A DNA stretch of 64,000 bases from Bacteroidales bacterium. Its GTDB lineage: Bacteria; Bacteroidota; Bacteroidia; Bacteroidales; UBA932. The number at the start of each line of letters is the position of its first letter. Positions within the stretch are counted from its first letter, which is position 1. Shown here piece by piece: positions 22,612 to 40,316 of this stretch. The position numbers and the translations under genes are program-made. A model generated the notes under the pieces. The model saw only the letters and a list, made by a program, of their open reading frames with translations, made no database searches and was not told where the DNA came from. The DNA lies in assembly GCA_017455065.1 (NCBI GenBank), contig JAFTBU010000010.1, positions 95,028-159,027 on the forward strand, written 5' to 3'.

Positions 22612-23642
22612 TGAAAAAGATCATCCTGGCGATACTTGCAGTCCTCGTGGCGGTAGCTGCCGTCACGGCGTGGAACTGGCTGAGGGACAACCGCCTGCCC
22701 GCCTTCGAGGGGGAAAGTGTGGAGCTGTATGTCTATCCGGACACCCCCGTGCAGGAGGTGCTGGACAGCATCGCTTCGCAGACCACGGTCAAATGGCCCC
22801 GCCGCCTGGAGAAAGTGTTCGAAAAACACGAGGTGGCCACTTATATGTCCCCCGGACACTATGTGATAGAGCCTTCATACACCGCGACTTATGTGACCAG
22901 GATGCTGAACAACTGCTGGCAGACTCCCGTGCGCGTGGTGCTTTCCGGCACCCTGCGCCGCAAACCCGAGATAGCCCGCAAGATCGCAAACCAGCTGATG
23001 CTGGACTCGACTGCCGTCATCACCGCGATGAATGACAATGCCTTTCTTTCCCGCTACGGCTACGACACCACTTCGGTCTTCGCCATGATGCTTCCCGACA
23101 CCTACGAGATGTACTGGACGGCCTCTGTCGAAGATTTCTTCGACGTGCAGACCAAGGCCGTGGATGCCTTCTGGACGGAAGAAAATCTGGCGAAAGCCAA
23201 AAAACTCGGGCTGACCCGCAGGCAGGCTACCATAGTGGCTTCGATAGTGAGCGGAGAGACCCATTATGTGCCGGAGATGCCCAAGATAGCAGGTGTCTAT
23301 CTGAACCGCCTGCGCATAGGCATGAAACTACAGGCTGACCCGACCATAGCCTATTGCTACGACTATGACCTGCAGAGAGTGTTGAAGCGCAATCTCGAGA
23401 TAGATTCGCCCTACAACACCTACAGATATGCCGGCCTGCCTCCGGGACCTATCTATGTCCCTACGAAGAACACGCTGAACGCAGTGCTCAATCCTGATTT
23501 CGGGGGTGGGAATCTCTTTTTCTGCGCCGATCCTTCATTCAACGGCTCGCACCGTTTCGCCAGGACCTACAGCCAGCATCTGACTAACGCCCGCGCTTAC
23601 CAGAGGGCTTTGGATCAGAGGAATTCTTCTCCTGCCAAATGA
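22611..23642 (+). CDS. mltG: Endolytic murein transglycosylase MltG
   Basis: Inner-membrane lytic transglycosylase that cuts nascent glycan strands and sets their length. The 343-residue protein has one N-terminal membrane helix (about 2-21), a LysM-like region, and the YceG domain with IVASIVSGET (catalytic Glu216), YLNRL, MKLQADPTIAY and the YNTYRYAGLPPGPI loop. Its last 59 bases overlap the 3' end of the convergent rsh gene on the other strand. It is translationally coupled to the glucosaminidase upstream. Confidence 0.93.
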   Translation: MKKIILAILAVLVAVAAVTAWNWLRDNRLPAFEGESVELYVYPDTPVQEVLDSIASQTTVKWPRRLEKVFEKHEVATYMSPGHYVIEPSYTATYVTRMLNNCWQTPVRVVLSGTLRRKPEIARKIANQLMLDSTAVITAMNDNAFLSRYGYDTTSVFAMMLPDTYEMYWTASVEDFFDVQTKAVDAFWTEENLAKAKKLGLTRRQATIVASIVSGETHYVPEMPKIAGVYLNRLRIGMKLQADPTIAYCYDYDLQRVLKRNLEIDSPYNTYRYAGLPPGPIYVPTKNTLNAVLNPDFGGGNLFFCADPSFNGSHRFARTYSQHLTNARAYQRALDQRNSSPAK

Positions 23643-25461
23643 CCCTCTGCACCCTGTAGGGGAACAGAGTCTTCAGCCTCGGGGCATTGGGACAGTCGTC
23701 CCTGTGTATCTTGATTCCTTCAGTCCTGGTGACGAATCCGAAGACATCGTCCCCATAGCTGGGATTGCAGCAGGCTGCCATACGGTACTCCAGACCCTTT
23801 ACTCCCTTGGCGTTGATGACCAGGATGTCCTCGGAGCCGGAGCCTCCCTTGCCGCTCTCTTTTTTCTCCTCCTCGCCTCGTCCCAGCCGGTTCACCAGCA
23901 GGTCCGGGTCGAGGATGTATTCCTTGATATCATTGATATCTATGGTGCCGTCTCCCACGGCGGCCATGAATGAGATCACGGAGTTGTATCCCAGGTGGTG
24001 CATCATCCTGGCCATGAGCTCGTCCGGGAGGGTGAGCTTCCAGTTGTGCAGTCTCCTCTGCAGCAGCTCGCGGCCTTCGGCGGCCTGCTTGCGCACCTCT
24101 GCGTCCAGCTCCAGCTTGATCTTGCTGCGGGCCTTGGCGGAAACCACCCAGTTCAGCCAGTCGGCGCTGGGCTTCTGGTTCTTGCCGCTCATTATCTCCA
24201 CCACGTCTCCCGTGGAGAGCTTTTCCTTGATGGCGACGGCCTTGCCGTTTATGCGGCCTCCGGTGCAGCGGCAGCCCAGTCCGGTGTGGATGCAGAATGC
24301 GAAATCCAGCACCGACGCCCCTTTTGGCAATATCTTCAGCTCTCCCGTCGGGGTGAAGACGAATATCTCCTTGTCGGGAGGGGAGGGGATATCTTCTGAG
24401 GACAGCTCGTAACGGTGCTCGAGATTGTACCTTACCGAGGTCAGCCATTTGTCCAGGGTGGCGTCTCCCTTCACCCCCTTGTAGGACCAGTGGGAGGCGA
24501 GGCCGCTCTCTGCGATGTCATCCATGCGCTTGGTGCGTATCTGCACCTCCACATAGGCGCCGCGGGCATTCTTGACAGTGATATGCAGGGATTCGTAGCC
24601 GTTGTCCTTGGGCCTGGAGAGCCAGTCGCGCAGCCTCGAAGGGTCGGCTTCATACTCTTTGGTCACGTACGAATAGACCTTCCAGCAAAGGTCCTGCTCG
24701 GTCTTGTGGTCGGCGTCGCACTCGATGATGAAGCGGATGGCGAACACATCGTACACGCCTTCGAAAGGCACCTGCTGCTTGAGCATCTTGCGGTAGATAG
24801 AGTAGGCAGTCTTGGTGCGTATCTTAAGCTTGTAGCGTATGCCTTCGTCAGAAAGCTCTTTCTGGAGAGGCTTGATGAATTCCTCCATCAGCCTCTGGCG
24901 GTCCTTCTCACTGGCTTTGAGCTTGCGGGTGATGGAGCGGTACTGCTCCGGTTCGGCGTACTTGAAATATATGTCCTCCAGCTCGCTCTTGATGTTGTAC
25001 AGCCCCAGCTGGTGGGCCAGGGGGATGTAGAGCATCAGGGTCTCGAGTATCTTCTGGTCACGGGAGCTCTTGGGGAAGATGTGCAGGTTGCGCATCACCT
25101 CCAGCCGGTCGGCTATCTTTAGCAGGGTGACCCTCGGGTCCGTGGAGTACTGGACTATGAGTTTTTTGTAGTTCTCGGCTTCGAGCCTGGTGTCGCGGGG
25201 CTTGATGGTGGAAATCTTGTTGAGCCCGTCCACCATGGTCTTCACGTCCTGGGGAAAGGCGCTGATATCCACTTCCGGATGGAATCTCTGGGCTTCGTGC
25301 AGATAGACGGCTGCGATGCTCTCAGGATCCAGACCGATTTCGTCCTCGACTATGCGTGCCACACCGTCCGGGTGGCCAATGAAGGGCCTCCCGTCGCTGC
25401 GGAAATCGTCGCGAAGGGCTTCGATGGCTATTCGTCTCGCTGTCAGAACCAGGTCGTCCAT
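23584..25461 (-). CDS. relA: RelA-type long RSH (ppGpp synthetase), degenerate hydrolase, no ACT domain
   Basis: A 625-residue RelA/SpoT homologue. The HD domain (about 20-150) keeps GHPDGVA and KIADRLEVMRNL, but the metal-binding HD..ED motif reads LHEAQRF, so ppGpp hydrolysis is probably lost. The synthetase domain (about 225-340) is intact, with YDVFAIRFI, NGYESLHITV and VEVQIRT. A TGS domain (about 385-445), a helical part and a cysteine domain (AACCNPSYGDD ... HRDDC) follow. The protein then stops about 30 residues later, without the usual C-terminal ACT domain. The start at 25461 lies 5 bases after a TATCTTTG box. A hydrolase-dead RelA-like paralogue is usual in Bacteroidota; the missing ACT is not. 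Confidence 0.88.
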   Translation of the reverse strand: MDDLVLTARRIAIEALRDDFRSDGRPFIGHPDGVARIVEDEIGLDPESIAAVYLHEAQRFHPEVDISAFPQDVKTMVDGLNKISTIKPRDTRLEAENYKKLIVQYSTDPRVTLLKIADRLEVMRNLHIFPKSSRDQKILETLMLYIPLAHQLGLYNIKSELEDIYFKYAEPEQYRSITRKLKASEKDRQRLMEEFIKPLQKELSDEGIRYKLKIRTKTAYSIYRKMLKQQVPFEGVYDVFAIRFIIECDADHKTEQDLCWKVYSYVTKEYEADPSRLRDWLSRPKDNGYESLHITVKNARGAYVEVQIRTKRMDDIAESGLASHWSYKGVKGDATLDKWLTSVRYNLEHRYELSSEDIPSPPDKEIFVFTPTGELKILPKGASVLDFAFCIHTGLGCRCTGGRINGKAVAIKEKLSTGDVVEIMSGKNQKPSADWLNWVVSAKARSKIKLELDAEVRKQAAEGRELLQRRLHNWKLTLPDELMARMMHHLGYNSVISFMAAVGDGTIDINDIKEYILDPDLLVNRLGRGEEEKKESGKGGSGSEDILVINAKGVKGLEYRMAACCNPSYGDDVFGFVTRTEGIKIHRDDCPNAPRLKTLFPYRVQRVIWQEKNSSDPKPSGKRGR

Positions 25462-25466
25462 GGAAG

Positions 25467-25474
25467 CAAAGATA
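25467..25474 (-). promoter_or_regulatory. -7 box of the RSH gene
   Basis: TATCTTTG on the minus strand, 5 bases before the ATG at 25461, predicts a nearly leaderless mRNA and excludes the longer open frame that reaches 25647. Confidence 0.55.
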
Positions 25475-25564
25475 TAAAATATCGGAAGAAAAGCATATCT
25501 TCGCAACCTTGTTCCGCAGGGAATACCCTGGATTTTGTGCCCGATCCGCGGTACTGTGGCCCGC

Positions 25565-26626
25565 TTATAATTCCAGATAGGCCAGATAGGATGTTCCCAT
25601 CCGGTCCTGGACGATGGCATAGACATGCTTTCCGCCGGCATCAACACAGAGTTTGCGGATCCGGTAATCCGTAACGATCCGCCGCAGGGCTCTGCCTTTC
25701 CAATTGAAGATGTCTATCTTGTCGCACAAAAGTTTTCTCTCCTCTTCCGGCAGCGATTGATTTACGAGGACGGGAACCTCTCCTCCGCTTGCGAGATAAA
25801 CCGATTTGTCTGTTGCATAGATGTCGGCGTAATGGAGGACGGTTTTCTCGGTCATTTTGATATTTCCTGTAGGGCATTCGTATTCTTGTCCGGCAAAATA
25901 ACCGATATGGCGGGGTTGCAGACCGGGCACGTCATACAACTCCAACACAGCGCTCCAGCATGGTACGATGGCGCATTTGGTTCCGTCAGGTGACAAAGAA
26001 ACGTAATAGGTGTTGGCATAATTTGCCAGCTGGTTCTCTTCCGGGTAATTGTCGTTCTCCGATACGACAGACCCGGACTTGTCCGTTACTTTCAGGCGTG
26101 GTTCTCTAATGGCATCATCGCCCTCCGCGCCCGATGCAATGAATAAATGGACATCGTAGTTCCCGGTCGTTCCACGATACCGCTGCCCGTACAGGAAGTC
26201 TCCCTTCAACTCTTCGACAGCTCCGGATCCTTGTTGCAGCAGGGAATCGACAGAGAAGCGAAAAACGGAATTCTTCGTAAAATCAAAATACCTTACCGTG
26301 CCGTTGTGCACCTCGAAAGTGCCGTATCCGGCCATGATTTCACCCGGACCCCGTCCCCGGTGGAAAGTTTCTCCCAGGAGTTCCCCTGTGTGCTTATCAT
26401 AGATATGGCAGAAGTTGTGTGTACGTTTCTCCGAAGCCAAGGTGACGATATAGGATTCTGTCTCCCAGATGTCCTCTATTACGCCATAATCCAGTTCTCC
26501 TGTCAGCAGGATAAAGCGGGCCTGTTCTTCGACAGGGAATACCGGCTGTTTATAGGCAATCCCGCCTTGCGTGCAGGAAACACAGACAGAGAGGGTCGTC
26601 AAACCCAGAAGGAACAACTTTCTCAT
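25565..26626 (-). CDS. BF3164-like 6-bladed beta-propeller lipoprotein
   Basis: A 353-residue lipoprotein; the start at 26626 gives MRKLFLLGLTTLSVCVSC with a lipobox at its end. The mature part has the propeller hallmark HRGRGPGE near residue 90, SLSPDGTKCA and several short beta repeats. This matches the TolB-like/BF3164 lipoproteins found in many copies in Bacteroidales; no biochemical role is known. It lies between the rsh gene and the uvrB 3'-end remnant. If the island at 26811-31030 is an insertion, this gene was once directly downstream of uvrB. Confidence 0.75.
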   Translation of the reverse strand: MRKLFLLGLTTLSVCVSCTQGGIAYKQPVFPVEEQARFILLTGELDYGVIEDIWETESYIVTLASEKRTHNFCHIYDKHTGELLGETFHRGRGPGEIMAGYGTFEVHNGTVRYFDFTKNSVFRFSVDSLLQQGSGAVEELKGDFLYGQRYRGTTGNYDVHLFIASGAEGDDAIREPRLKVTDKSGSVVSENDNYPEENQLANYANTYYVSLSPDGTKCAIVPCWSAVLELYDVPGLQPRHIGYFAGQEYECPTGNIKMTEKTVLHYADIYATDKSVYLASGGEVPVLVNQSLPEEERKLLCDKIDIFNWKGRALRRIVTDYRIRKLCVDAGGKHVYAIVQDRMGTSYLAYLEL

Positions 26627-31023: not shown

Positions 31024-33168
31024 TTAGTCTTTCCAGACTTTCAGATACTCCTGCAGGGCCCACATTTCGTCGCGGAAGTGGGCTGCTGCTGTGAAGTCCA
31101 GTTCGGCTGCGGACTTGGTCATGCGGCGGCGGTCTTCCTCGATCATCTTTTCGACCTGCTCGCGCGAGAGCGAACGTATCACCGGATCCTGCAGCACTGC
31201 GGCGAGGTCGGCGCGGACGTGCCCTTCGGCGAATGCGGCACCGCTTTCCCTGCGGGAATCGTGGCCGAGGCCCACGGTGACGGTGCCCTTGCCGAGGTCG
31301 GAAGGATTGGGAATATAGACGGGGTCGTCGTAGGAGTTGGGGGCGCTGAAGCGTCCGGTGGTACCTCCGGCGAGGCGGGATGCCAGCACATTCTGGCGTA
31401 TGCCCACCTGCTTCGGAGTGATATGGTGCTGTTTGTTGTATTCTATCTGCTTGGCCCTGCGGCGCTCGGTCTCACGTATGGTCTCCTCCATCGACCGGGT
31501 GACGGTATCAGCGTACATGATTACCAGACCGTTGATGTTGCGGGCGGCGCGCCCGGCGGTCTGGGTGAGGGCGCGGCCTGTCCTGAGGAAGCCCTCCTTG
31601 TCTGCGTCAAGTATGGCCACGAGCGACACCGAGGGGATGTCCAGACCTTCCCTGAGGAGGTTCACTCCGACCAGCACGTCGAACATGCCGTTCTTGAAAT
31701 CCTCTATGATTTCGACCCTTTCGGTGGTCTCCACGTCGGAATGGATGTAGCGTACCCTGACGCCTATCCTCTCCAGATAGCTGTTCAGCTCCTCGGCCAT
31801 CCTCTTGGTGAGCGTGGTCACCAGCACCCTTTCATCGTTCTCGCTGCGCTTGCGTATCTCCTCGACCAGGTCGTCCACCTGGTTCTTGGTGGGCCTGACC
31901 TCGATGGGAGGGTCCAGCAGGCCCGTGGGCCTCACGACTTGCTCCACCACCAGTCCTTCGGACTTCTGGAGTTCGTAATCCGCAGGAGTGGCGCTGACAT
32001 AGACTTTCTGGCCGGTGAGATGCTCGAACTCGTCGAAGGTCAGAGGACGGTTGTCAGCCGCGGCGGGGAGACGGAAACCGTATTCGACCAGCACGGATTT
32101 GCGGCTGTGGTCGCCTCCGTACATGGCGTGAACCTGGGGGAGGGTGACATGGCTCTCGTCCACGAAGGTTATGAAATCCTTGGGGAAATAGTCCAGCAGG
32201 CAGAAAGGCCTCTGTCCAGGCTTGCGCCCGTCGAAATATCTGGAGTAATTTTCTATGCCCGGGCAGTAGCCCATCTCCTTGATCATTTCCAGGTCGTACT
32301 CGACCCTCTGCTTGAGTCTTTTGGCCTCGAGGCCTTTGTCGATGGATTCGAAATACTCCATCTGCCGGACGAGGTCGTCCTGTATCTCGCTCACCGCGGC
32401 AATGCTCCTCTCGCGGGTGGTGACGAAATTGTTGGCGGGATAGATGTTGATCTCATCGATATCCTCGATGCGGGCTCCTGTCACCGGGTCGATTATGGAC
32501 AGGGCGTCCACCTCGTCCCCGAAAAACTCTATCCTCACCGCGTCGTCGGCTCCGGCCAGGTACACGTCCACCGTATCCCCCTTGACCCTGAAGGAACCGC
32601 GGGTGAAATCGGCTTCGGTGCGGCTGTAGAGGGCATCCACCAGCTTGTACAGCAGTCCGGTGAGGCTCCGGGTCTCGCCGCGGCGGACGGTCACGGTCTG
32701 GCTGTGGAAGTCGTCGGGATTGCCTATGCCGTAGAGGCAGGACACCGAAGACACCACGATCACATCCCGTCTGCCGCTCAGCAGCGACGAGGCTGCCGAG
32801 AGGCGGAGCTTCTCGATCTCGTCGTTGATGCTCAGGTCCTTCTCGATGTAGGTGTCAGTGCTGGGGATGTAGGCCTCAGGCTGGTAGTAGTCGTAATAAG
32901 ACACGAAATACTCCACCGCGTTGGCCGGGAAATAGGATTTGAACTCTCCGTACAGCTGTGCCGCCAGGGTCTTGTTGTGACTGAGGATGAGGGCCGGCCT
33001 CTGGAGCCGCTCGATCACATTGGCCATGGTGAAAGTCTTGCCCGATCCCGTCACGCCCAGCAAGCACACGTCGCCTACTCCGGAAGAAAGCGCCGAACAA
33101 AGCTGGTCTATGGCCGAAGGCTGATCTCCCGAAGGCTGGTATTCTGACTGGAGTTTGAAATTCATCAT
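31024..33168 (-). CDS. uvrB: Excinuclease ABC subunit B
   Basis: Damage-verification helicase of nucleotide excision repair; it receives DNA from UvrA and recruits UvrC. The 714 residues include Walker [11 protein letters not shown] (about 38-47), the [12 protein letters not shown] beta-hairpin, FVDESH Walker B, SATPADYE, the late helicase motif QTAGRAARN, and a C-terminal UVR domain. The second ATG at 33165 may be the real start, since the TAAATTTG box (33170-33177) ends one base before the first. The last 63 bases of homology are duplicated at 26748-26810. Confidence 0.95.
31031..31093. repeat. Right copy of the uvrB 3'-end direct repeat
   Basis: This 63-base segment inside uvrB matches 26748-26810 in the same orientation with four mismatches. 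The repeat ends 7 bases before the end of the uvrB stop codon, so it marks one edge of the island 26811-31030. Confidence 0.85.
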
Positions 33169-33169
33169 A

Positions 33170-33197
33170 CAAATTTAACTATAAAATGCTATCTTTG
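33170..33197. promoter_or_regulatory. Divergent promoters of uvrB and the alarmone operon
   Basis: Minus-strand TAAATTTG (33170-33177) serves uvrB and plus-strand TATCTTTG (33190-33197) serves the RelA/SpoT-domain gene, 5 bases before its ATG. The boxes are 12 bases apart, so occupancy is likely to be exclusive. This ties excision repair and alarmone synthesis to one promoter region. Confidence 0.5.
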
Positions 33198-33202
33198 AAA
33201 CT

Positions 33203-34315
33203 ATGGAAACAGACAGTACAGAAAAATACGGGCTGGATTTGCACTGCACCATGATACTCGACGAGTATCGCGAGATGCTGCCCACCTTTGAACTTATGAA
33301 AACCGTGGTCCTGGACATGCTTCGCAAGGAGCTCTCCGACAGGGGTATCTTCGTCACCGCCGTGGACGCCAGGATCAAGACCGAGGCGAGTCTCGCCGGC
33401 AAGCTGGAGCTCAAGGGTGCCAAGTACAGGACCCTTTCCGACATCACCGACATACTCGGAGCCAGGATCATCACCTTCTACACCGACGACGTGGACAAGA
33501 TCTCCTCCCTGGCCGAAAAGCTCTTCGACATAGACTGGGAGAATTCGGTGGACAAACGCAAGATCCTGGACCTGAACTCTTTCGGCTACCTGTCCCTGCA
33601 CTATATATGCCGCATCCCCAAGACCCTGTTTTTCGACGCTGACCATCCCGAGCTCAACGACTGGCCTTTCGAGCTGCAGATGAGGACCACCCTCCAGCAC
33701 ATGTGGGCCAACATGTACCACGATACGGGCTACAAATCAGGTGTGGAGGTACCCAGGGAGCACCTGCGCAATCTCAGCCGCCTCGCGGGAATGCTGGAGC
33801 TGGCGGACGATGAATTCAGCCGCATCCGCACCAGTATCAACGATTACCGCCGCAAGGTCCAGAACCTCGTGGCCGACGGTAATTTCGAGGAGGTTCCCCT
33901 GAACGGCGACACCTTCAAGAGCTACCTCGAACTCAAGCCCTTCGACAGTCTGAACAAGCGCATCGCCGCCATCAACCAGGCGGAGATACACCAGGCTTCG
34001 ATGCTTTCCTATCTGCAGGTCTTCAAGTTCCTCGGGCTCAATACTCTGGGAGACCTCGACCGCCTCATCAAGGAAGAGGACGGCGACGCCTACAAATATG
34101 CCGTGTACGAGCTCGGACAGACCGACCTCGACATCATCTCCTCCACAGTGGCCCTGCAGTACCTCTGCCTTGTGCGCATACTCAAGAGCGGAGGCGGAGA
34201 AAAGGACCTGGCGTCTTTCTTCGAGATCGTCAACGGAAAGAGTTCGCACAATGAGGCCAGGGCACGCTTCGTGATCCAGTCGGCATCCAATCTACCATTC
34301 ATGAAAAACAAATAG
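33203..34315 (+). CDS. RelA/SpoT-domain alarmone synthetase with C-terminal extension
   Basis: Predicted to transfer pyrophosphate from ATP to a guanine (or adenine) nucleotide. The 370-residue protein has no HD, TGS or ACT domain. The synthetase core (about 45-190) shows ARIKTEASLAGKLELKG, the metal Asp region SDITDILGARII, GYLSLHYI, and FELQMRT followed by HMWANMYHDTGYK, so all core catalytic positions look intact. A helical C-terminal part of about 180 residues has no recognised domain. Two bases separate it from an HD hydrolase-kinase gene, suggesting a synthesis/removal pair. It may be a housekeeping small synthetase or a toxSAS-type toxin. Confidence 0.75.
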   Translation: METDSTEKYGLDLHCTMILDEYREMLPTFELMKTVVLDMLRKELSDRGIFVTAVDARIKTEASLAGKLELKGAKYRTLSDITDILGARIITFYTDDVDKISSLAEKLFDIDWENSVDKRKILDLNSFGYLSLHYICRIPKTLFFDADHPELNDWPFELQMRTTLQHMWANMYHDTGYKSGVEVPREHLRNLSRLAGMLELADDEFSRIRTSINDYRRKVQNLVADGNFEEVPLNGDTFKSYLELKPFDSLNKRIAAINQAEIHQASMLSYLQVFKFLGLNTLGDLDRLIKEEDGDAYKYAVYELGQTDLDIISSTVALQYLCLVRILKSGGGEKDLASFFEIVNGKSSHNEARARFVIQSASNLPFMKNK

Positions 34316-34317
34316 CC

Positions 34318-35748
34318 ATGGCAAACGCTCCTATAGATTCTTCCCTGCTCGACAGGGCGATAGTTTTCGCAGTCAAAGCCCATGCCGGCACTGAGCGCCG
34401 CGGCAAAGGCTATCCCTACATAGTCCATCCCATGGAGGCCGTGGAGATAGTCTCCACCATGACCCCCGACCAGGAGCTCCTGGCGGCAGCCGCCCTCCAC
34501 GATACCATAGAGGATACCGATGTGACCTATGAGGATCTGGAGAAAGAATTCGGCAAGAGAGTAGCGGACCTTGTGGAAGCCGAGTCGGACAAATTCACCT
34601 CAGGGGTCTCCGAAAGCGACAGCTGGCGCAGCCGCAAGCAGGCAGCCATAGACCGCCTGGCCCATGCCCCCTACGAGGCCAAGATGGTGGCCCTGGGAGA
34701 CAAGCTCTCCAACATGAGGGCGATATGGCGCGACTGGACCGTCAAAGGGGACGAGCTGTGGAAAATCTTCCACGCCCCTGGCGGTAAAGCCGACCATGAA
34801 TGGCATTACCGCGGCCTGGCGGCGTCCCTCTCGGACCTCGCCGGCACCTTCGCCTATTCGGAGTTCTGTGAGCTGATAGGCCGGGTCTTCGGGGACAATG
34901 CGCAGTGGTATGCCACGCCCATAAACCTTTCCGGCTACAAGCAGAGCGGCGAAGGCTTCAACGCCGTCACCTACGACAGCCCCGACGGACACAGCCTCGT
35001 GAAGATGTACGATGAGGGCGTCCCCTATACAGTGCCGCAGTCTGAGCTGGACAACAGCTCCAAGATACTCACCCTGGGCATTTCCGTGCCCCGTCCGGGA
35101 AGGCTTGTGACCGACGGCAAGCGCATAGGTGCCGAGTTCGAGAGGATCTCTCCCAAGAAATCATTCTCCAGGGTCATCGCCGACGATCCCGGGAAACTCG
35201 AAGAGACCACCGTCACCTTCGCCCGCATGGCCAAGTCCCTGCATTCAAAGCATTGCAACAAGCATGATTTCCCCTCCATAGCCGCAGTCACGGCCGAAGA
35301 AGTGAAGAATGCAAAATATCTGGATGAAGCCCTCAAGGGCCGTATCCTGGATTTCATAGCCTCAGTGCCCGAGATGGACAGCTGCGTCCACGGAGACCTG
35401 CATATAGGAAATGTCATCACCAATTCCGAGGGATGCTGGTGGATAGACCTGGGCGATTTCGGCTGGGGCAACCCCTTGTTCGACCTGGGCATGTTCCACT
35501 TCGTCACCAAATGCGGCGAAGAAGAGATCATCCAGAGGGTCTTCCACATGGGCAAGGCTATGATAGACCGAGTCTGGGAAGTATTCATGAAAGAGTACTA
35601 CGGAGTGGACAAAAAAGAAGAGCTGGATGAGATAGCCAGGACCCTGACTCCCTTCGCAGCTCTCCGTCTTATCCACTTCAACAGCATCAAAGATGTGATG
35701 GATCCGGGGCTCATGGGCTTCATCGCATCCCAGTTCCCCCCGAAATAG
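34318..35748 (+). CDS. MESH1-like HD alarmone hydrolase fused to an APH-like kinase
   Basis: A 476-residue two-domain protein. Residues 1-175 resemble the stand-alone (p)ppGpp hydrolase MESH1: His37 in YIVHPMEA, His61-Asp62 with IEDT in ALHDTIEDT, and Asp in ALGDKLSNMRAI. All the metal and catalytic positions lost in the long RSH are present. Residues about 190-476 form an aminoglycoside-phosphotransferase-like kinase with SCVHGDLHIGN (catalytic loop, His358) and WIDLGDFGWGNPLFDLG (metal loop). The kinase substrate is unknown. It follows the synthetase by 2 bases and converges on guaA with a 3-base gap. Confidence 0.72.
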   Translation: MANAPIDSSLLDRAIVFAVKAHAGTERRGKGYPYIVHPMEAVEIVSTMTPDQELLAAAALHDTIEDTDVTYEDLEKEFGKRVADLVEAESDKFTSGVSESDSWRSRKQAAIDRLAHAPYEAKMVALGDKLSNMRAIWRDWTVKGDELWKIFHAPGGKADHEWHYRGLAASLSDLAGTFAYSEFCELIGRVFGDNAQWYATPINLSGYKQSGEGFNAVTYDSPDGHSLVKMYDEGVPYTVPQSELDNSSKILTLGISVPRPGRLVTDGKRIGAEFERISPKKSFSRVIADDPGKLEETTVTFARMAKSLHSKHCNKHDFPSIAAVTAEEVKNAKYLDEALKGRILDFIASVPEMDSCVHGDLHIGNVITNSEGCWWIDLGDFGWGNPLFDLGMFHFVTKCGEEEIIQRVFHMGKAMIDRVWEVFMKEYYGVDKKEELDEIARTLTPFAALRLIHFNSIKDVMDPGLMGFIASQFPPK

Positions 35749-35751
35749 GCA

Positions 35752-36711
35752 CTATTCCCATTCGATAGTGGCCTGCGGCTTCGACGAAATGTCGAAGACG
35801 ACCCTGTTGACACCCTTCACGTTGGCGATGATGTCGTGCTGGACCTCGTCCAGAAGCTCCCACGGCAGATGCACCACCTGTGCGGTCACGGCGTCGATGC
35901 TGTTGACAGCGCGCAGTGCGATCACATTGTCATAGGTGCGGCGTCCGTCCTTGATGCCGGTCGTCTGTACGGGGACGAATATGGCTCCTGCCTGCCAGAT
36001 CTTGTCATACCAGCCGCTCTTGCGCAGGGCGGTGATCCAGATGGCGTCGGCCTCCTGGAGTATGGCGATCTTTTCGGGGGTGAGCTCGCCGAGGCAGCGC
36101 ACTCCGAGACCGGGGCCCGGGAAAGGATGCCTTCCGAGCAGATGGGGGTCGAGACCGATGGCGGCGCCGACTTCCCTCACTTCGTATTTGTACAGATACT
36201 TCAGAGGCTCCACGAGACCCAGGTGCATCTCCTCGGGGAGACCGCCCACATTGTGATGGCTCTTGATGGTGCCCTTGTCGGAGTGGGACTCGGCGATGTC
36301 GGGCCAGATGGTGCCCTGGGCCAGCCACTTGGCGTTCTCCACCTTGTGGGCCTCCTCGTCGAACACATCGATGAAGGTCTTGCCTATGGCTTTGCGCTTC
36401 AGCTCGGGATCGGTGATGCCCTTGCATGCGGCGAAGAACCTGTCGGCGGCGCGTACGCCTTTGATGTTGAGGCCCATGCCCTCGTAATGCTTGAGCACGT
36501 CCTCGAATTCATTCTTGCGCAGCAGACCGTGGTCCACGAAGATGCAATGAAGCTGGCGGCCTACCGCCTTGTGGATGAGCATGGCAGTCACGGAAGAGTC
36601 CACTCCTCCGGACAGGCCGAGAATCACGTTGTCCGAACCTACCTGAGCCTTGATCTGGGCTATCTGTTCGTCGATGAACGCCTGGGCGTTTAATTTTTCT
36701 CCGTTGTACAT
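35752..36711 (-). CDS. guaA: GMP synthase ATP-pyrophosphatase subunit (no glutaminase domain)
   Basis: Amidates XMP to GMP using ATP. The 319-residue protein has the PP-loop SGGVDSS at residues 34-40, the [10 protein letters not shown] segment, [11 protein letters not shown] and the C-terminal dimerisation domain ending in [12 protein letters not shown]. The N-terminal class I glutamine amidotransferase domain of the usual bacterial enzyme of about 510 residues is absent. The adjacent guaB leaves no room for it. It thus resembles the archaeal split GuaA subunit. It must use free ammonia or a partner glutaminase encoded elsewhere. It is last in the 11-gene purine operon. Confidence 0.92.
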
Positions 36712-38210: not shown

Positions 38211-40316
38211 TTATCGTTTCATGGAGTCGAGGAAACACTCGAGGGTGTTTTCCATAAGCATGGCAATGGTCATGGGACCCACTCCGCCGGGGACGGGGGT
38301 GATCCAGGAAGCTCTCTGGCGGGCGGCGATGAAGTCCACGTCGCCGCAGAGCTTGCCCTCGGCATTGCGGTTCATGCCCACGTCTATCACCACGGCGCCG
38401 GGCTTGACCATGTCGCCGGTGACCACTTTCTCGCGGCCCACGGCCACCACCAGGACATCAGCCTGAAGGGTGACGGACTTGAGGTCGGCGGTGCGGGAGT
38501 GGGCGATGATCACGGTGGCGTTGCGGTCCAGCAGGAGTTTGGCCACCGGCTTGCCCACGATGTTGCTGCGGCCTACCACCACGGCGGTCTTGCCGCAGAG
38601 GTCTATGCCGCTCTCATCGATGAGCCTCAGGATGCCCTTGGGGGTGCAGGGGACTATGCAGTGCCGTCCTATCCAGAGCTCGCCGACGTTCAGCACGTGG
38701 AATCCGTCCACGTCCTTTTCCTTGGCAATGGCGTCGATCACCTTCGATTCGTCGATGTGCCTGGGCAGGGGGAGCTGCACCAGGATGCCGTCGAGGGTGG
38801 GGTCGGCGTTCATGCCGGCGATGGTCTCGAGCAGGGCCTGCTCGGAGGTCTCTTCGGGCATCTTGATGAGGCGGGAATCCATGCCGATGTAGGTGGCGCT
38901 GCGCACTTTGTTGCGCACATATACCTGGCTGGCGGGATTGTCTCCGACCATGATGACGGCGAGCGAAGGCTTGCGGCCGTACTCGGCTTCGAGGGCGGCG
39001 ACCTTGTCCTTCAGGCCTTCCTTGATGGAGTCGGAAAGGGCCTTGCCGTCGAGGATACGGCCTTCCAGGGCGACGTGGGCGATGTCATGACGGTAGAACA
39101 GGGCATCGCAGGATATTTTGCCCAGTTCCGCATAGACTTTCTCCCTTGCCTCCCTGATGTCCGCACCTTCGGCGACGACCATCATCACGCGTCCTCCGGC
39201 GGTCAGCAGGTGACCTGCCTCCAGCTTGGTCCCCATATGGTAGACTTTTGCGTCCACCTCCTCAGTCCCGAGGATTTCGGCGCCCTTGGGGTAGGAGCCG
39301 GGATAGCCTTTAGAGGCCAATACGACACCGAGGGTCACCGCGTCGCGCCATACCGGCATGGACGTGGGGCGCCCGGAGGCCACTGCCTCGAAGATGTCGT
39401 AGATGTCGCTTTGGAGCAGGGGCAGCACCACTTCCGTCTCGGGGTCGCCGAAACGGGCGTTGAACTCTATCACCTTGATCCCGTCCGGAGTCTTCATCAG
39501 ACCGCCGTAGAGCACGCCCGAGAGGGGACAACCCTCAGTGCACATGGCCTTGGCCGTGGCCTCGAGTATGTTTTTCAGGGCGAATTCCCTGTCTGCAGCG
39601 GTGATGAAAGGCAGGCCGGTGTAGGCGCCCATGCCTCCGGTGTTGGGGCCCTTGTCCCCGTCGAAAGCCCTCTTGTGGTCCTGGGCGAGGGGCATGGGAT
39701 ACACCCTGTCCCCGTCCACGAATGCCATGAAGGAGAATTCGGGTCCGGTGAGGTAGTCTTCCACCACCACGCGGCCGGCTCCGAAAGTCTCGTCGAGCAG
39801 CATGCTGCGCAGGGCCGCTTCGGCCTCCTGGGCATCGGCAGCTATCACCACACCCTTGCCGGCGGCCAGTCCGTCATATTTCAGGACGGCGGGGAAGGGG
39901 CGGGAATTGACGAAGGCGAGAGCCTCTCCGAAATCGTCGAAACTGCGGTATGCCGAGGTGGGGATGCCATATTTGACCATGATTTCCTTGGCGAACTCCT
40001 TGCTGCTCTCCAGGCGGGTGGCAGCCTTGGTGTGGCCGAATATCTTGAGCCCCGCAGCCCTGAAAGCGTCGGCTATGCCTGCGGCCAATGAGGCCTCGGG
40101 TCCCACTACGGTGAGGTCGATGCCTTCTTTGAGGGCGAAGTCCAGCAGTCCCTTGACGTCGGTGTCCTTCAGGGGGACGTTCTCCGCCTGGGCGCCTATG
40201 CCGGCATTGCCCGGGGCGCAATAAATCTTGGCGACCCTGGGGGAACGGCTCAATGCGTCCACTATGGCATGGCAGCGACCGCCGCCGCCCACTACGAGCA
40301 CTTTCCTGTCTTTCAT
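38211..40316 (-). CDS. purD-folD: PurD-FolD fusion: GAR synthetase and methylene-THF dehydrogenase/cyclohydrolase
   Basis: One continuous 701-codon frame. Residues 1 to about 415 are phosphoribosylamine-glycine ligase: GGGGRCHAI at the start (relatives have GGGGREHA), YDGLAAGKGVV, the ATP-grasp VIEFNARFGDPE and the normal PurD ending YRHDIAHVAL. FolD begins in the very next residues (LEGRILDGKAL) and is complete to residue 701, with YVRNKVRSATYIGM, the Lys and Gln of DGILVQLPLP, GRSNIVGKPVA and PVPGGVGPMTIAML. FolD makes 10-formyl-THF, which the next pathway enzyme PurN uses on the PurD product. The junction is seamless, with no sign of frameshift. Confidence 0.93.
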   Translation of the reverse strand: MKDRKVLVVGGGGRCHAIVDALSRSPRVAKIYCAPGNAGIGAQAENVPLKDTDVKGLLDFALKEGIDLTVVGPEASLAAGIADAFRAAGLKIFGHTKAATRLESSKEFAKEIMVKYGIPTSAYRSFDDFGEALAFVNSRPFPAVLKYDGLAAGKGVVIAADAQEAEAALRSMLLDETFGAGRVVVEDYLTGPEFSFMAFVDGDRVYPMPLAQDHKRAFDGDKGPNTGGMGAYTGLPFITAADREFALKNILEATAKAMCTEGCPLSGVLYGGLMKTPDGIKVIEFNARFGDPETEVVLPLLQSDIYDIFEAVASGRPTSMPVWRDAVTLGVVLASKGYPGSYPKGAEILGTEEVDAKVYHMGTKLEAGHLLTAGGRVMMVVAEGADIREAREKVYAELGKISCDALFYRHDIAHVALEGRILDGKALSDSIKEGLKDKVAALEAEYGRKPSLAVIMVGDNPASQVYVRNKVRSATYIGMDSRLIKMPEETSEQALLETIAGMNADPTLDGILVQLPLPRHIDESKVIDAIAKEKDVDGFHVLNVGELWIGRHCIVPCTPKGILRLIDESGIDLCGKTAVVVGRSNIVGKPVAKLLLDRNATVIIAHSRTADLKSVTLQADVLVVAVGREKVVTGDMVKPGAVVIDVGMNRNAEGKLCGDVDFIAARQRASWITPVPGGVGPMTIAMLMENTLECFLDSMKR

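What the first reader, a model, noticed from the sequence alone, without database searches (positions are those of the whole stretch)
33203..35748. Two-gene alarmone module: RelA/SpoT-domain synthetase plus HD hydrolase fused to an APH-like kinase
The sequence shows a stand-alone synthetase with intact core motifs. Two bases later comes a protein joining a complete MESH1-like HD hydrolase (HD, IEDT) to a kinase with HGDLH and D..D motifs. Known: toxSAS toxins are neutralised by adjacent MESH1-type hydrolases, and APH-type enzymes phosphorylate small molecules or proteins. Inference: the pair makes and removes an alarmone, and the kinase adds another step (toxin control or alarmone modification). 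A hydrolase-kinase fusion next to a synthetase is not an arrangement I recognise as described.
Basis: partly seen in the sequence, partly recalled or inferred. Interest (0 to 1): 0.82.

Follow-up and report, generated by a model that had tools for sequence, protein, structure and literature searches.

The report
Alarmone enzymes wired to a partner-switch
Two genes that look able to make and destroy a bacterial stress signal, one of them fused to a kinase, belong to a larger gene set in gut and rumen bacteria that also carries a phosphatase-kinase-STAS signalling switch, suggesting that outside signals may set the stress-signal level directly.

Summary
At 33203-34315 lies an intact-looking small alarmone synthetase (SAS). 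Two bases later, 34318-35748 encodes an intact-looking MESH1-type HD hydrolase fused to a TIGR02172 (APH-superfamily) kinase. In 87 related loci (75 after redundancy removal) the SAS usually sits with a partner-switching module: PP2C phosphatase, RsbW-like HATPase, stand-alone STAS protein. Of 49 representatives with at least 6 kb on both sides, 40 have a partner-switch gene within 6 kb, 27 have STAS within 60 bp upstream, 33 have the HD, 31 the kinase, 11 the fusion. In the window's own genome the partner-switch operon lies on another contig. A STAS-kinase fusion beside a PP2C-HATPase ties the kinase to the switch. Best explanation: a partner switch whose output is alarmone synthesis and hydrolysis, as SiaABCD and HsbA-HsbD control c-di-GMP. 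The toxin-antitoxin reading is not supported. Seven full-text searches showed no description of the system. Physical interactions, direction of control and the kinase substrate are inferred, not shown.

The parts
33203..34315 (+). Small alarmone synthetase (SAS), 370 aa; PF04607 at residues 57-180
   Evidence: R57, K59, S63, K67, D83, R88, Y129, H133, E157, Q159, R161 invariant in the 60 aligned sequences, window included
33857..34312 (+). C-terminal domain of the SAS (residues 219-370), conserved in the family; candidate regulatory or docking domain
   Evidence: 39-sequence alignment, 59% mean column identity; no PDB sequence match up to E 10; no Pfam match in the protein besides RelA_SpoT at E 0.1 or better
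34318..35748 (+). Fusion protein: MESH1-type HD alarmone hydrolase + TIGR02172 kinase, 476 aa
34318..34905 (+). HD hydrolase part (residues 1-196); H37, H61, D62, E65, D66, D128, N132 invariant in 50 of 50 aligned sequences
34921..35598 (+). TIGR02172 (APH-superfamily) kinase part (residues 202-427); K229, HGD at 358-360, N365, D377 invariant in 49 of 49 aligned sequences

Best explanation
The two genes are the output arm of a sensory system in which a partner switch controls alarmone level. A membrane sensor-PP2C phosphatase (dCache in the three full-length examples scanned; in some loci next to a periplasmic NMT1-like binding protein) and an RsbW-like HATPase kinase set the phosphorylation of a stand-alone STAS protein. 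The STAS protein, in one phosphorylation state, docks on the alarmone enzymes, most likely on the family-specific C-terminal domain of the SAS, and switches alarmone synthesis. The HD hydrolase removes the alarmone. The TIGR02172 kinase links switch and hydrolase: it phosphorylates a component of the switch or of the alarmone enzymes, with a Y_phosphatase3 protein as possible reverser. Shown: conserved active-site residues, linkage and co-inheritance of the parts, HD-kinase and STAS-kinase fusions. Inferred: that the parts touch each other, the direction of control, the kinase substrate, the alarmone made, and that in the window's genome the unlinked partner-switch operon on contig 44 acts on this pair.
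For: Linkage, 49 representatives with at least 6 kb on both sides: any partner-switch gene within 6 kb 40, STAS 39, HATPase 37, PP2C 27, all three 26, HD 33, kinase 31; STAS within 60 bp upstream on the same strand 27. Each of the 7 SAS-bearing genomes of the order has exactly one stand-alone STAS (frame of about 100 aa) by PF01740, in 4 of 7 within 6 kb of the SAS (about 2.5e-8 if STAS genes were placed uniformly). Window genome: one PP2C match, next to its only stand-alone STAS match; operon NMT1 - dCache-HAMP-PP2C - HATPase - STAS. Within-genus control: in the four genera of the sample with both kinds of genome, 6 of 6 SAS-bearing genomes have a PP2C of 157 bits or more and 0 of 5 SAS-free congeners (G008, G001, G120, G201, G274) have a strong one. 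All 9 of the 49 without a linked partner-switch gene have a PP2C of 157 bits or more elsewhere. In G319, where SAS and HD are apart, the HD sits in an HD - kinase - PP2C/HATPase - STAS run (L293). STAS-kinase fusion beside PP2C-HATPase in L306. Key residues conserved in HD 50, kinase 49, PP2C 45, HATPase 57, STAS 60 sequences. Precedents with c-di-GMP: SiaC-SiaD, HsbA-HsbD, BgrV-BgrR (PMC8457831 passages; PMC5085249 abstract).
Against: In the window's genome the partner switch is not linked to the pair (another contig; the pair lies about 35 kb from its contig's nearer end). PP2C is common in the order: a match in 221 of 295 genomes, and one of 150 bits or more in 65 of 288 genomes without a close SAS (hand count). 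G224, same family, has no close SAS yet has a strong PP2C and a stand-alone STAS. Of 34 full-length TIGR02172 copies in 24 SAS-bearing genomes, 19 have no SAS in the fetched stretch (some stretches are cut by contig ends), and the window genome has two such. Fibrobacter loci have SAS and HD without kinase or linked switch. Neighbourhood cannot show binding or direction. The 80 scanned loci are the best-scoring of 552 or more. One linked PP2C-HATPase (L098, 480 aa) shows no dCache.
Confidence: 0.6

Rival explanations
1. Toxin-antitoxin (toxSAS) pair: the SAS is a toxin, the HD an enzymatic antitoxin, the kinase an extra control.
For: HD within 6 kb of the SAS in 63 of 87 loci. FaRel has an SAH antitoxin gene beside it (PMC11782079 passages).
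Against: Profile closest to RelP/RelQ-type chains (E 1e-17) and far from CapRel-type chains (0.0045); no other toxSAS chain matched at E 1 (type names recalled, I did not check which toxSAS chains are held). A Prevotellaceae clade of 7 representatives has no linked HD, and its 5 genomes searched gave no close HD relative. The viral scan gave one remote relative, 29% identity. Linked to sensory genes.
Confidence: 0.08
2. Plain housekeeping alarmone pair: SAS and HD tune (p)ppGpp, and the partner-switch genes are neighbours that control something else, such as an unknown regulator.
For: In the window, in the six Fibrobacter-titled loci and in G101/G286 the pair stands without a linked switch. 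In 6 of 88 loci a LuxR-type gene follows the SAS (one member identified by Pfam), a possible alternative output.
Against: STAS lies within 60 bp upstream of the SAS in 27 of 49 representatives. Parts are often kept when unlinked. HD-kinase and STAS-kinase fusions bridge the two halves.
Confidence: 0.22
3. The kinase modifies the alarmone or a small metabolite rather than a protein, and the Y_phosphatase3 neighbour reverses it. (This rival concerns the kinase step only and can hold together with the best explanation.)
For: The only kinase among 23 PDB profile matches is methylthioribose kinase (E 0.0023). Pfam and NCBIfam relatives are largely small-molecule kinases. A Y_phosphatase3-type cluster lies within 7 kb of the SAS in 23 of 88 loci (one member identified by Pfam).
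Against: Fusions to STAS and to HD place it with protein switches. Fold kinship does not tell the substrate; protein kinases such as Bud32 and PRK11768 (annotated serine/threonine protein kinase) are also among the weak matches.
Confidence: 0.3

Closest known systems
SiaABCD of Pseudomonas aeruginosa (and HsbA-HsbD, BgrV-BgrR)
   Same: Phosphatase and kinase set the phosphorylation of a STAS or STAS-like protein that controls a nucleotide second-messenger synthetase (PMC8457831 passages; PMC5085249 abstract).
   Different: There the output is a diguanylate cyclase; here it would be an alarmone synthetase plus hydrolase, with an added TIGR02172 kinase. Direct control is not shown here.
RelP / RelQ small alarmone synthetases
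   Same: Best PDB profile matches (2be3, 3l9d, 5f2v, 6fgk, 6ewz, 6fgj, 5dec, 5ded; E 1e-17 to 3.5e-16; RelP/RelQ assignment recalled); active-site residues invariant.
   Different: Extra conserved C-terminal domain of about 150 aa; gene set with a partner switch.
DsRel (Tde-SAS) with Tde-SAH of Treponema denticola
   Same: SAS with a C-terminal extension, working with a small hydrolase; the extension restrains synthesis (PMC10434055 abstract and passages).
   Different: Its extension is TPR; no TPR family matches the window SAS at E 0.1. Words beginning kinase, STAS, SpoIIE or operon do not occur in that paper's main text. Its sequence was not compared here.
MESH1-type small alarmone hydrolases
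   Same: HD_4 domain with the conserved metal/catalytic residues; matches 7qoe, 7qoc, 4yf1, 3nr1, 5vxa.
   Different: Fused to a kinase in 12 of 75 representatives.
RsbU/RsbV/RsbW partner switching
   Same: PP2C, STAS with SSxG motif, HATPase with E/N box, often in one gene run (the roles of these motifs are recalled).
   Different: In the classical systems the target is a sigma factor (abstract of PMC11619594 in the listing); here an alarmone module stands in the output position. Whether a sigma factor is also a target was not tested.

Membership tests
Small alarmone synthetase (RelA_SpoT, PF04607) | Synthetase domain over the curated cut-off with conserved active-site residues | tested here: met
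   58.3 bits, cut-off 27; invariant residues
Small alarmone synthetase (RelA_SpoT, PF04607) | Makes an alarmone such as (p)ppGpp | not testable with these tools
   needs enzyme assay
toxSAS toxin-antitoxin | Sequence kinship closer to toxSAS than to RelP/RelQ | tested here: not met
   RelP/RelQ-type E 1e-17, CapRel-type 0.0045; no tree with all toxSAS subfamilies was built
toxSAS toxin-antitoxin | Dedicated neighbouring antitoxin present | tested here: not met
   HD absent within 6 kb in 16 of 49 representatives; no close HD relative in 6 of the 12 such genomes searched. Type II antitoxins of other kinds were not searched for
toxSAS toxin-antitoxin | Toxic alone, neutralised by partner | not testable with these tools
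   needs expression test
MESH1-type small alarmone hydrolase | HD_4 domain with H, HD, ED, D, N residues | tested here: met
   70.3 bits, cut-off 27.2; residues invariant in 50 of 50
TIGR02172 kinase family | Full-length match over the curated cut-off | tested here: inconclusive
   whole profile, 224.2 bits, cut-off 228.2; the orthologous fusions of G081 and G185 pass
TIGR02172 kinase family | Kinase residues K, HGD, N, D | tested here: met
   49 of 49
Partner-switching system (RsbU/V/W type) | PP2C + STAS with SSxG motif + HATPase present together | tested here: met
   in the window genome on another contig, L202; all three within 6 kb of the SAS in 26 of 49 representatives
Partner-switching system (RsbU/V/W type) | STAS or HATPase binds the output protein | not testable with these tools
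DsRel (SAS-TPR) | C-terminal TPR domain | tested here: not met
   no TPR family at E 0.1 or better in the window SAS; divergent TPR is not excluded

The most novel reading that the evidence does not exclude
A new branch of bacterial signalling: an extracellular-ligand partner switch whose output is the cell's alarmone pool instead of a sigma factor or c-di-GMP. The TIGR02172 kinase is a new protein kinase class that physically couples the STAS switch to alarmone hydrolysis. The system is widespread in gut and rumen Bacteroidales.
Probability: 0.45. Interest if true: 0.86.

Novelty: new variant of a known kind. Interest (0 to 1): 0.73.

Why it matters
Alarmone levels are classically tied to ribosome or starvation sensing (recalled). 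A dedicated membrane-sensor route to an alarmone synthetase-hydrolase pair would give these bacteria a direct link from outside signals to growth control. If the model holds, partner-switch control of second messengers extends from c-di-GMP to alarmones, and the TIGR02172 kinases, a name no paper in the searched library holds, get a testable role. It also gives a concrete hypothesis for the uncharacterised C-terminal domain of this SAS family.

Tried and rejected
Toxin-antitoxin reading: rejected on kinship, on HD-less loci and on linkage to sensory genes. PADLOC gave only the candidate PDC-S33, over the synthetase region. Viral origin: the viral scan gave one relative at 29% identity. Genome-level presence of PP2C as proof of linkage: weak, since 221 of 295 genomes have some PP2C; I rely on gene adjacency and the within-genus comparison. 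Kinase as a partner of the SAS alone: not supported, since 19 of 34 copies show no SAS in the fetched stretch. Fold of the C-terminal SAS domain: no PDB sequence match up to E 10, and structure prediction was off. Promoter and terminator scan of 33000-36000: nothing above chance.

Literature (open-access PMC library only, most subscription papers missing). Zero papers: TIGR02172; alarmone synthetase + STAS domain + SpoIIE; partner switching + ppGpp synthetase + Bacteroid. Few: four of five terms on RelA SpoT, SpoIIE, STAS, anti-sigma antagonist, operon, 3 papers; STAS domain + ppGpp + partner switch, 2 papers; small alarmone hydrolase + kinase domain + fused + Bacteroidetes, 1 paper. Three of four of alarmone, anti-anti-sigma factor, RsbW, RelA: 92 papers, 10 listed, so 82 were not seen. 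One search listed 30 of 137, 15 of 60. Nothing listed describes this system by title or abstract start. Papers seen: PMC10434055 abstract, outline and passages; PMC11782079, PMC3153485 and PMC8457831 passages; PMC5085249 abstract and outline; all others only as search listings.

Dropped rows: L145 (viral) left out of the 87 loci. One HD (L117, split in two ORFs) dropped, leaving 50 in the HD alignment. The 87 loci include two contigs held twice (L056/L076, L057/L099) and the very similar G101/G286; the 75 representatives at under 90% SAS identity remove these. Of the 75, 26 had less than 6 kb on one side and are outside the 49. For alignments I gave 60 of 75 SAS representatives (A2), 39 of those 60 (A4), and for A3 10 of 12 fused, 17 of 39 HD and 17 of 37 kinase rows. 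The gene labels in the loci come from my own six profiles built on the first loci, not from Pfam; only selected proteins were checked with Pfam.
Full report
WHAT IS THERE. The window holds a 370-aa small alarmone synthetase (33203-34315) and, two bases downstream, a 476-aa protein joining a MESH1-type HD hydrolase to a kinase (34318-35748). Domains: RelA_SpoT E 1.1e-15; HD_4 E 1.9e-19; APH E 2e-10; the kinase part matches TIGR02172 over its whole length (E 1.9e-66, 224.2 bits, cut-off 228.2). In 60 aligned SAS sequences the residues R57, K59, S63, K67, D83, R88, Y129, H133, E157, Q159 and R161 are invariant. H37, H61, D62, E65, D66, D128 and N132 of the HD are invariant in 50 of 50, and K229, H358-G-D360, N365 and D377 of the kinase in 49 of 49 (one split HD row dropped). 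That these are the catalytic residues is recalled from the RSH and APH families. Upstream is uvrB (-) and downstream are guaA-type and guaB-type genes (-) (guaA-type by Pfam; uvrB and guaB named by recall).

THE SYNTHETASE HAS AN EXTRA DOMAIN. Residues about 219-370 follow the catalytic domain. They are conserved in 39 aligned sequences (59% mean column identity), match no Pfam family at E 0.1 and no PDB sequence up to E 10. The catalytic domain is closest to RelP/RelQ-type chains (E 1e-17) and far from CapRel-type toxSAS chains (0.0045) (type names recalled).

THE PAIR IS CO-INHERITED. Of 295 genomes of the order, 7 carry a close SAS relative. The same 7 carry a strong HD relative: the next gene in 6, one gene away in G245; none of the other 288 does. 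A strong kinase relative (140 bits or more) is present in 5 of these 7 and in 0 of 288 others (Fisher tests, not corrected for kinship). G229, without a close SAS, has a weak kinase match, discussed below.

THE WIDER SYSTEM. With the 7 order genomes this gives 87 loci, 75 at under 90% SAS identity, 49 of these with at least 6 kb on both sides. In the 49: STAS within 6 kb 39, HATPase 37, PP2C 27, any of these 40, all three 26; HD 33; kinase 31; HD-kinase fused 11; STAS within 60 bp upstream on the same strand 27. Labels come from my own profiles; Pfam confirmed selected parts: SpoIIE-type PP2C, HATPase_c_2 and STAS, with PDC/dCache sensor in three full-length PP2C proteins (L202, L059, L306) and none in a shorter one (L098). 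Key residues are conserved: five PP2C aspartates in 45 of 45, HATPase E/N box in 57 of 57, STAS SSxG in 60 of 60. In G218 the order SAS, HD, kinase, PP2C-HATPase, STAS is a tight run with overlapping or near-touching ends.

SPLIT VERSIONS OFTEN KEEP THE PARTS. The window is one of 9 of the 49 without a partner-switch gene within 6 kb. All 9 genomes carry a PP2C of 157 bits or more elsewhere. I fetched 8 of the 9. HATPase and STAS stand beside the PP2C in 6 (G000, G101, G317, G318, G319 and, with weaker scores, G296) and were not seen in 2 (G320; G325, a short contig); G295 was not examined. In the window's own genome this operon is NMT1-like binding protein, dCache-HAMP-PP2C, HATPase, STAS on contig 44 (L202); it holds the genome's only PP2C match and only stand-alone STAS match (64 contigs, 96.7% complete). 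Within-genus control: four genera in the sample hold both kinds of genome. The 6 SAS-bearing ones have a PP2C of 157 bits or more; of their 5 SAS-free congeners, G008, G001 and G120 show no match, and G201 and G274 only weak ones (E 6e-13 and 1e-14). G008 also has no STAS match. Conversely, 16 of the 49 lack a linked HD. Of 12 of these genomes searched, 6 carry a close HD relative elsewhere (56-74% identity) and 6 do not (5 Prevotella or Prevotellaceae, and L066); 4 were not searched. In G319 the distant HD lies in an HD, kinase, PP2C-HATPase, STAS run (L293).

FUSIONS. HD and kinase are fused in 12 of 75 representatives. On the SAS tree the fused state needs 6 changes, at least 5 forced by well-supported branches, so fusion, fission or transfer happened repeatedly. 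In G229, which has no close SAS, a 416-aa protein joins a STAS domain (PF01740, 30.4 bits, cut-off 22.6) to a TIGR02172-type kinase (E 8e-30, 104 bits, under the family cut-off) next to a dCache-PP2C-HATPase protein. Two further kinases, in G304 and G316, carry a degenerate STAS_2-like N-terminus below the Pfam cut-off (22.5 and 22.0 of 29.2 bits). In G315 a kinase away from the SAS stands close to a PP2C gene (L267). The kinase is thus tied by fusion both to the switch protein and to the hydrolase. A Y_phosphatase3-type cluster lies within 7 kb of the SAS in 23 of 88 loci (one member checked with Pfam).

HOW IT PROBABLY WORKS. Known partner switches can drive nucleotide second messengers: unphosphorylated SiaC binds and activates the diguanylate cyclase SiaD, and SiaA and SiaB set its phosphorylation; HsbA and BgrV do likewise with HsbD and BgrR (PMC8457831 passages; PMC5085249 abstract). 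By analogy, a periplasmic signal acts on the PP2C, the STAS protein changes phosphorylation state, and it binds the alarmone enzymes, most likely the extra domain of the SAS. In the DsRel enzyme of Treponema a C-terminal domain restrains synthesis (PMC10434055 abstract), which shows that such a domain can be a control point. The kinase substrate is open: STAS, SAS or HD protein, or a small molecule. None of the binding steps is shown, nor the alarmone made.

AGAINST THIS READING. The window pair is not linked to the switch; the assembly is a draft, and the pair lies about 35 kb from its contig's nearer end. PP2C is common in the order: 221 of 295 genomes have a match, and 65 of 288 genomes without a close SAS have one of 150 bits or more (counted by hand from the listing). 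G224, same family, has no close SAS yet a strong PP2C and a stand-alone STAS. Of 34 full-length kinases in 24 SAS-bearing genomes, 19 show no SAS in the fetched stretch. The six Fibrobacter loci carry SAS and HD without kinase or linked switch, and the 4 Fibrobacter genomes searched have no TIGR02172 match. The sample is the best-scoring 80 of 552 or more. G320 and G325 did not show a full switch in the fetched stretch.

NOVELTY. Each part is of a known kind. The combination, a partner switch attached to an alarmone synthetase, hydrolase and TIGR02172 kinase, was not seen in seven targeted full-text searches of the open-access library, one of which listed only 10 of 92 papers; most subscription journals are not covered. 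Atkinson et al. list divRel and Mesh1-L in Fibrobacteres (PMC3153485 passages), which may be members of this pair. I rate it a new variant of a known kind, with high interest because it makes a specific, testable claim about alarmone control.

Noticed in passing
window 23584-25647 (-): A long RelA/SpoT protein (687 aa from GTG) lies about 7.6 kb from the pair. Its HD region reads LHEAQRF where active hydrolases have HDxxED (motif recalled), so it is probably a synthetase without hydrolase. A second long RSH is on contig 46.
   Followed up: partly
window 38211-40316 (-): PurD and FolD fused in one 701-aa ORF (GARS N, A, C domains followed by THF dehydrogenase/cyclohydrolase).
   Followed up: no
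window 35752-36711 (-): GMP-synthase-type ORF of 319 aa with GMP_synt_C and NAD_synthase-type matches only; no glutaminase match in the ORF.
   Followed up: no
L142 12500-13804: RsbW-like HATPase fused to a YegS/diacylglycerol-kinase-like protein inside the SAS gene run.
   Followed up: no
L096 11098-11703 and 5 other loci: A LuxR-type (GerE) gene follows the SAS directly in Prevotella-type loci that lack a linked HD and kinase, a possible alternative output.
   Followed up: partly
L108 5098-5748 and 4 other loci: A cytidylate-kinase-like cluster (PF13189 in the member checked) near the module.
   Followed up: no
L060, L061, L112, L118: Amino-acid-type ABC transporter genes directly upstream of the SAS in loci without a linked partner switch (named by recall).
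   Followed up: no
L073 and L115: MAGs titled Akkermansia whose SAS falls among Bacteroidales sequences; mis-binning, mis-titling or transfer.
   Followed up: no
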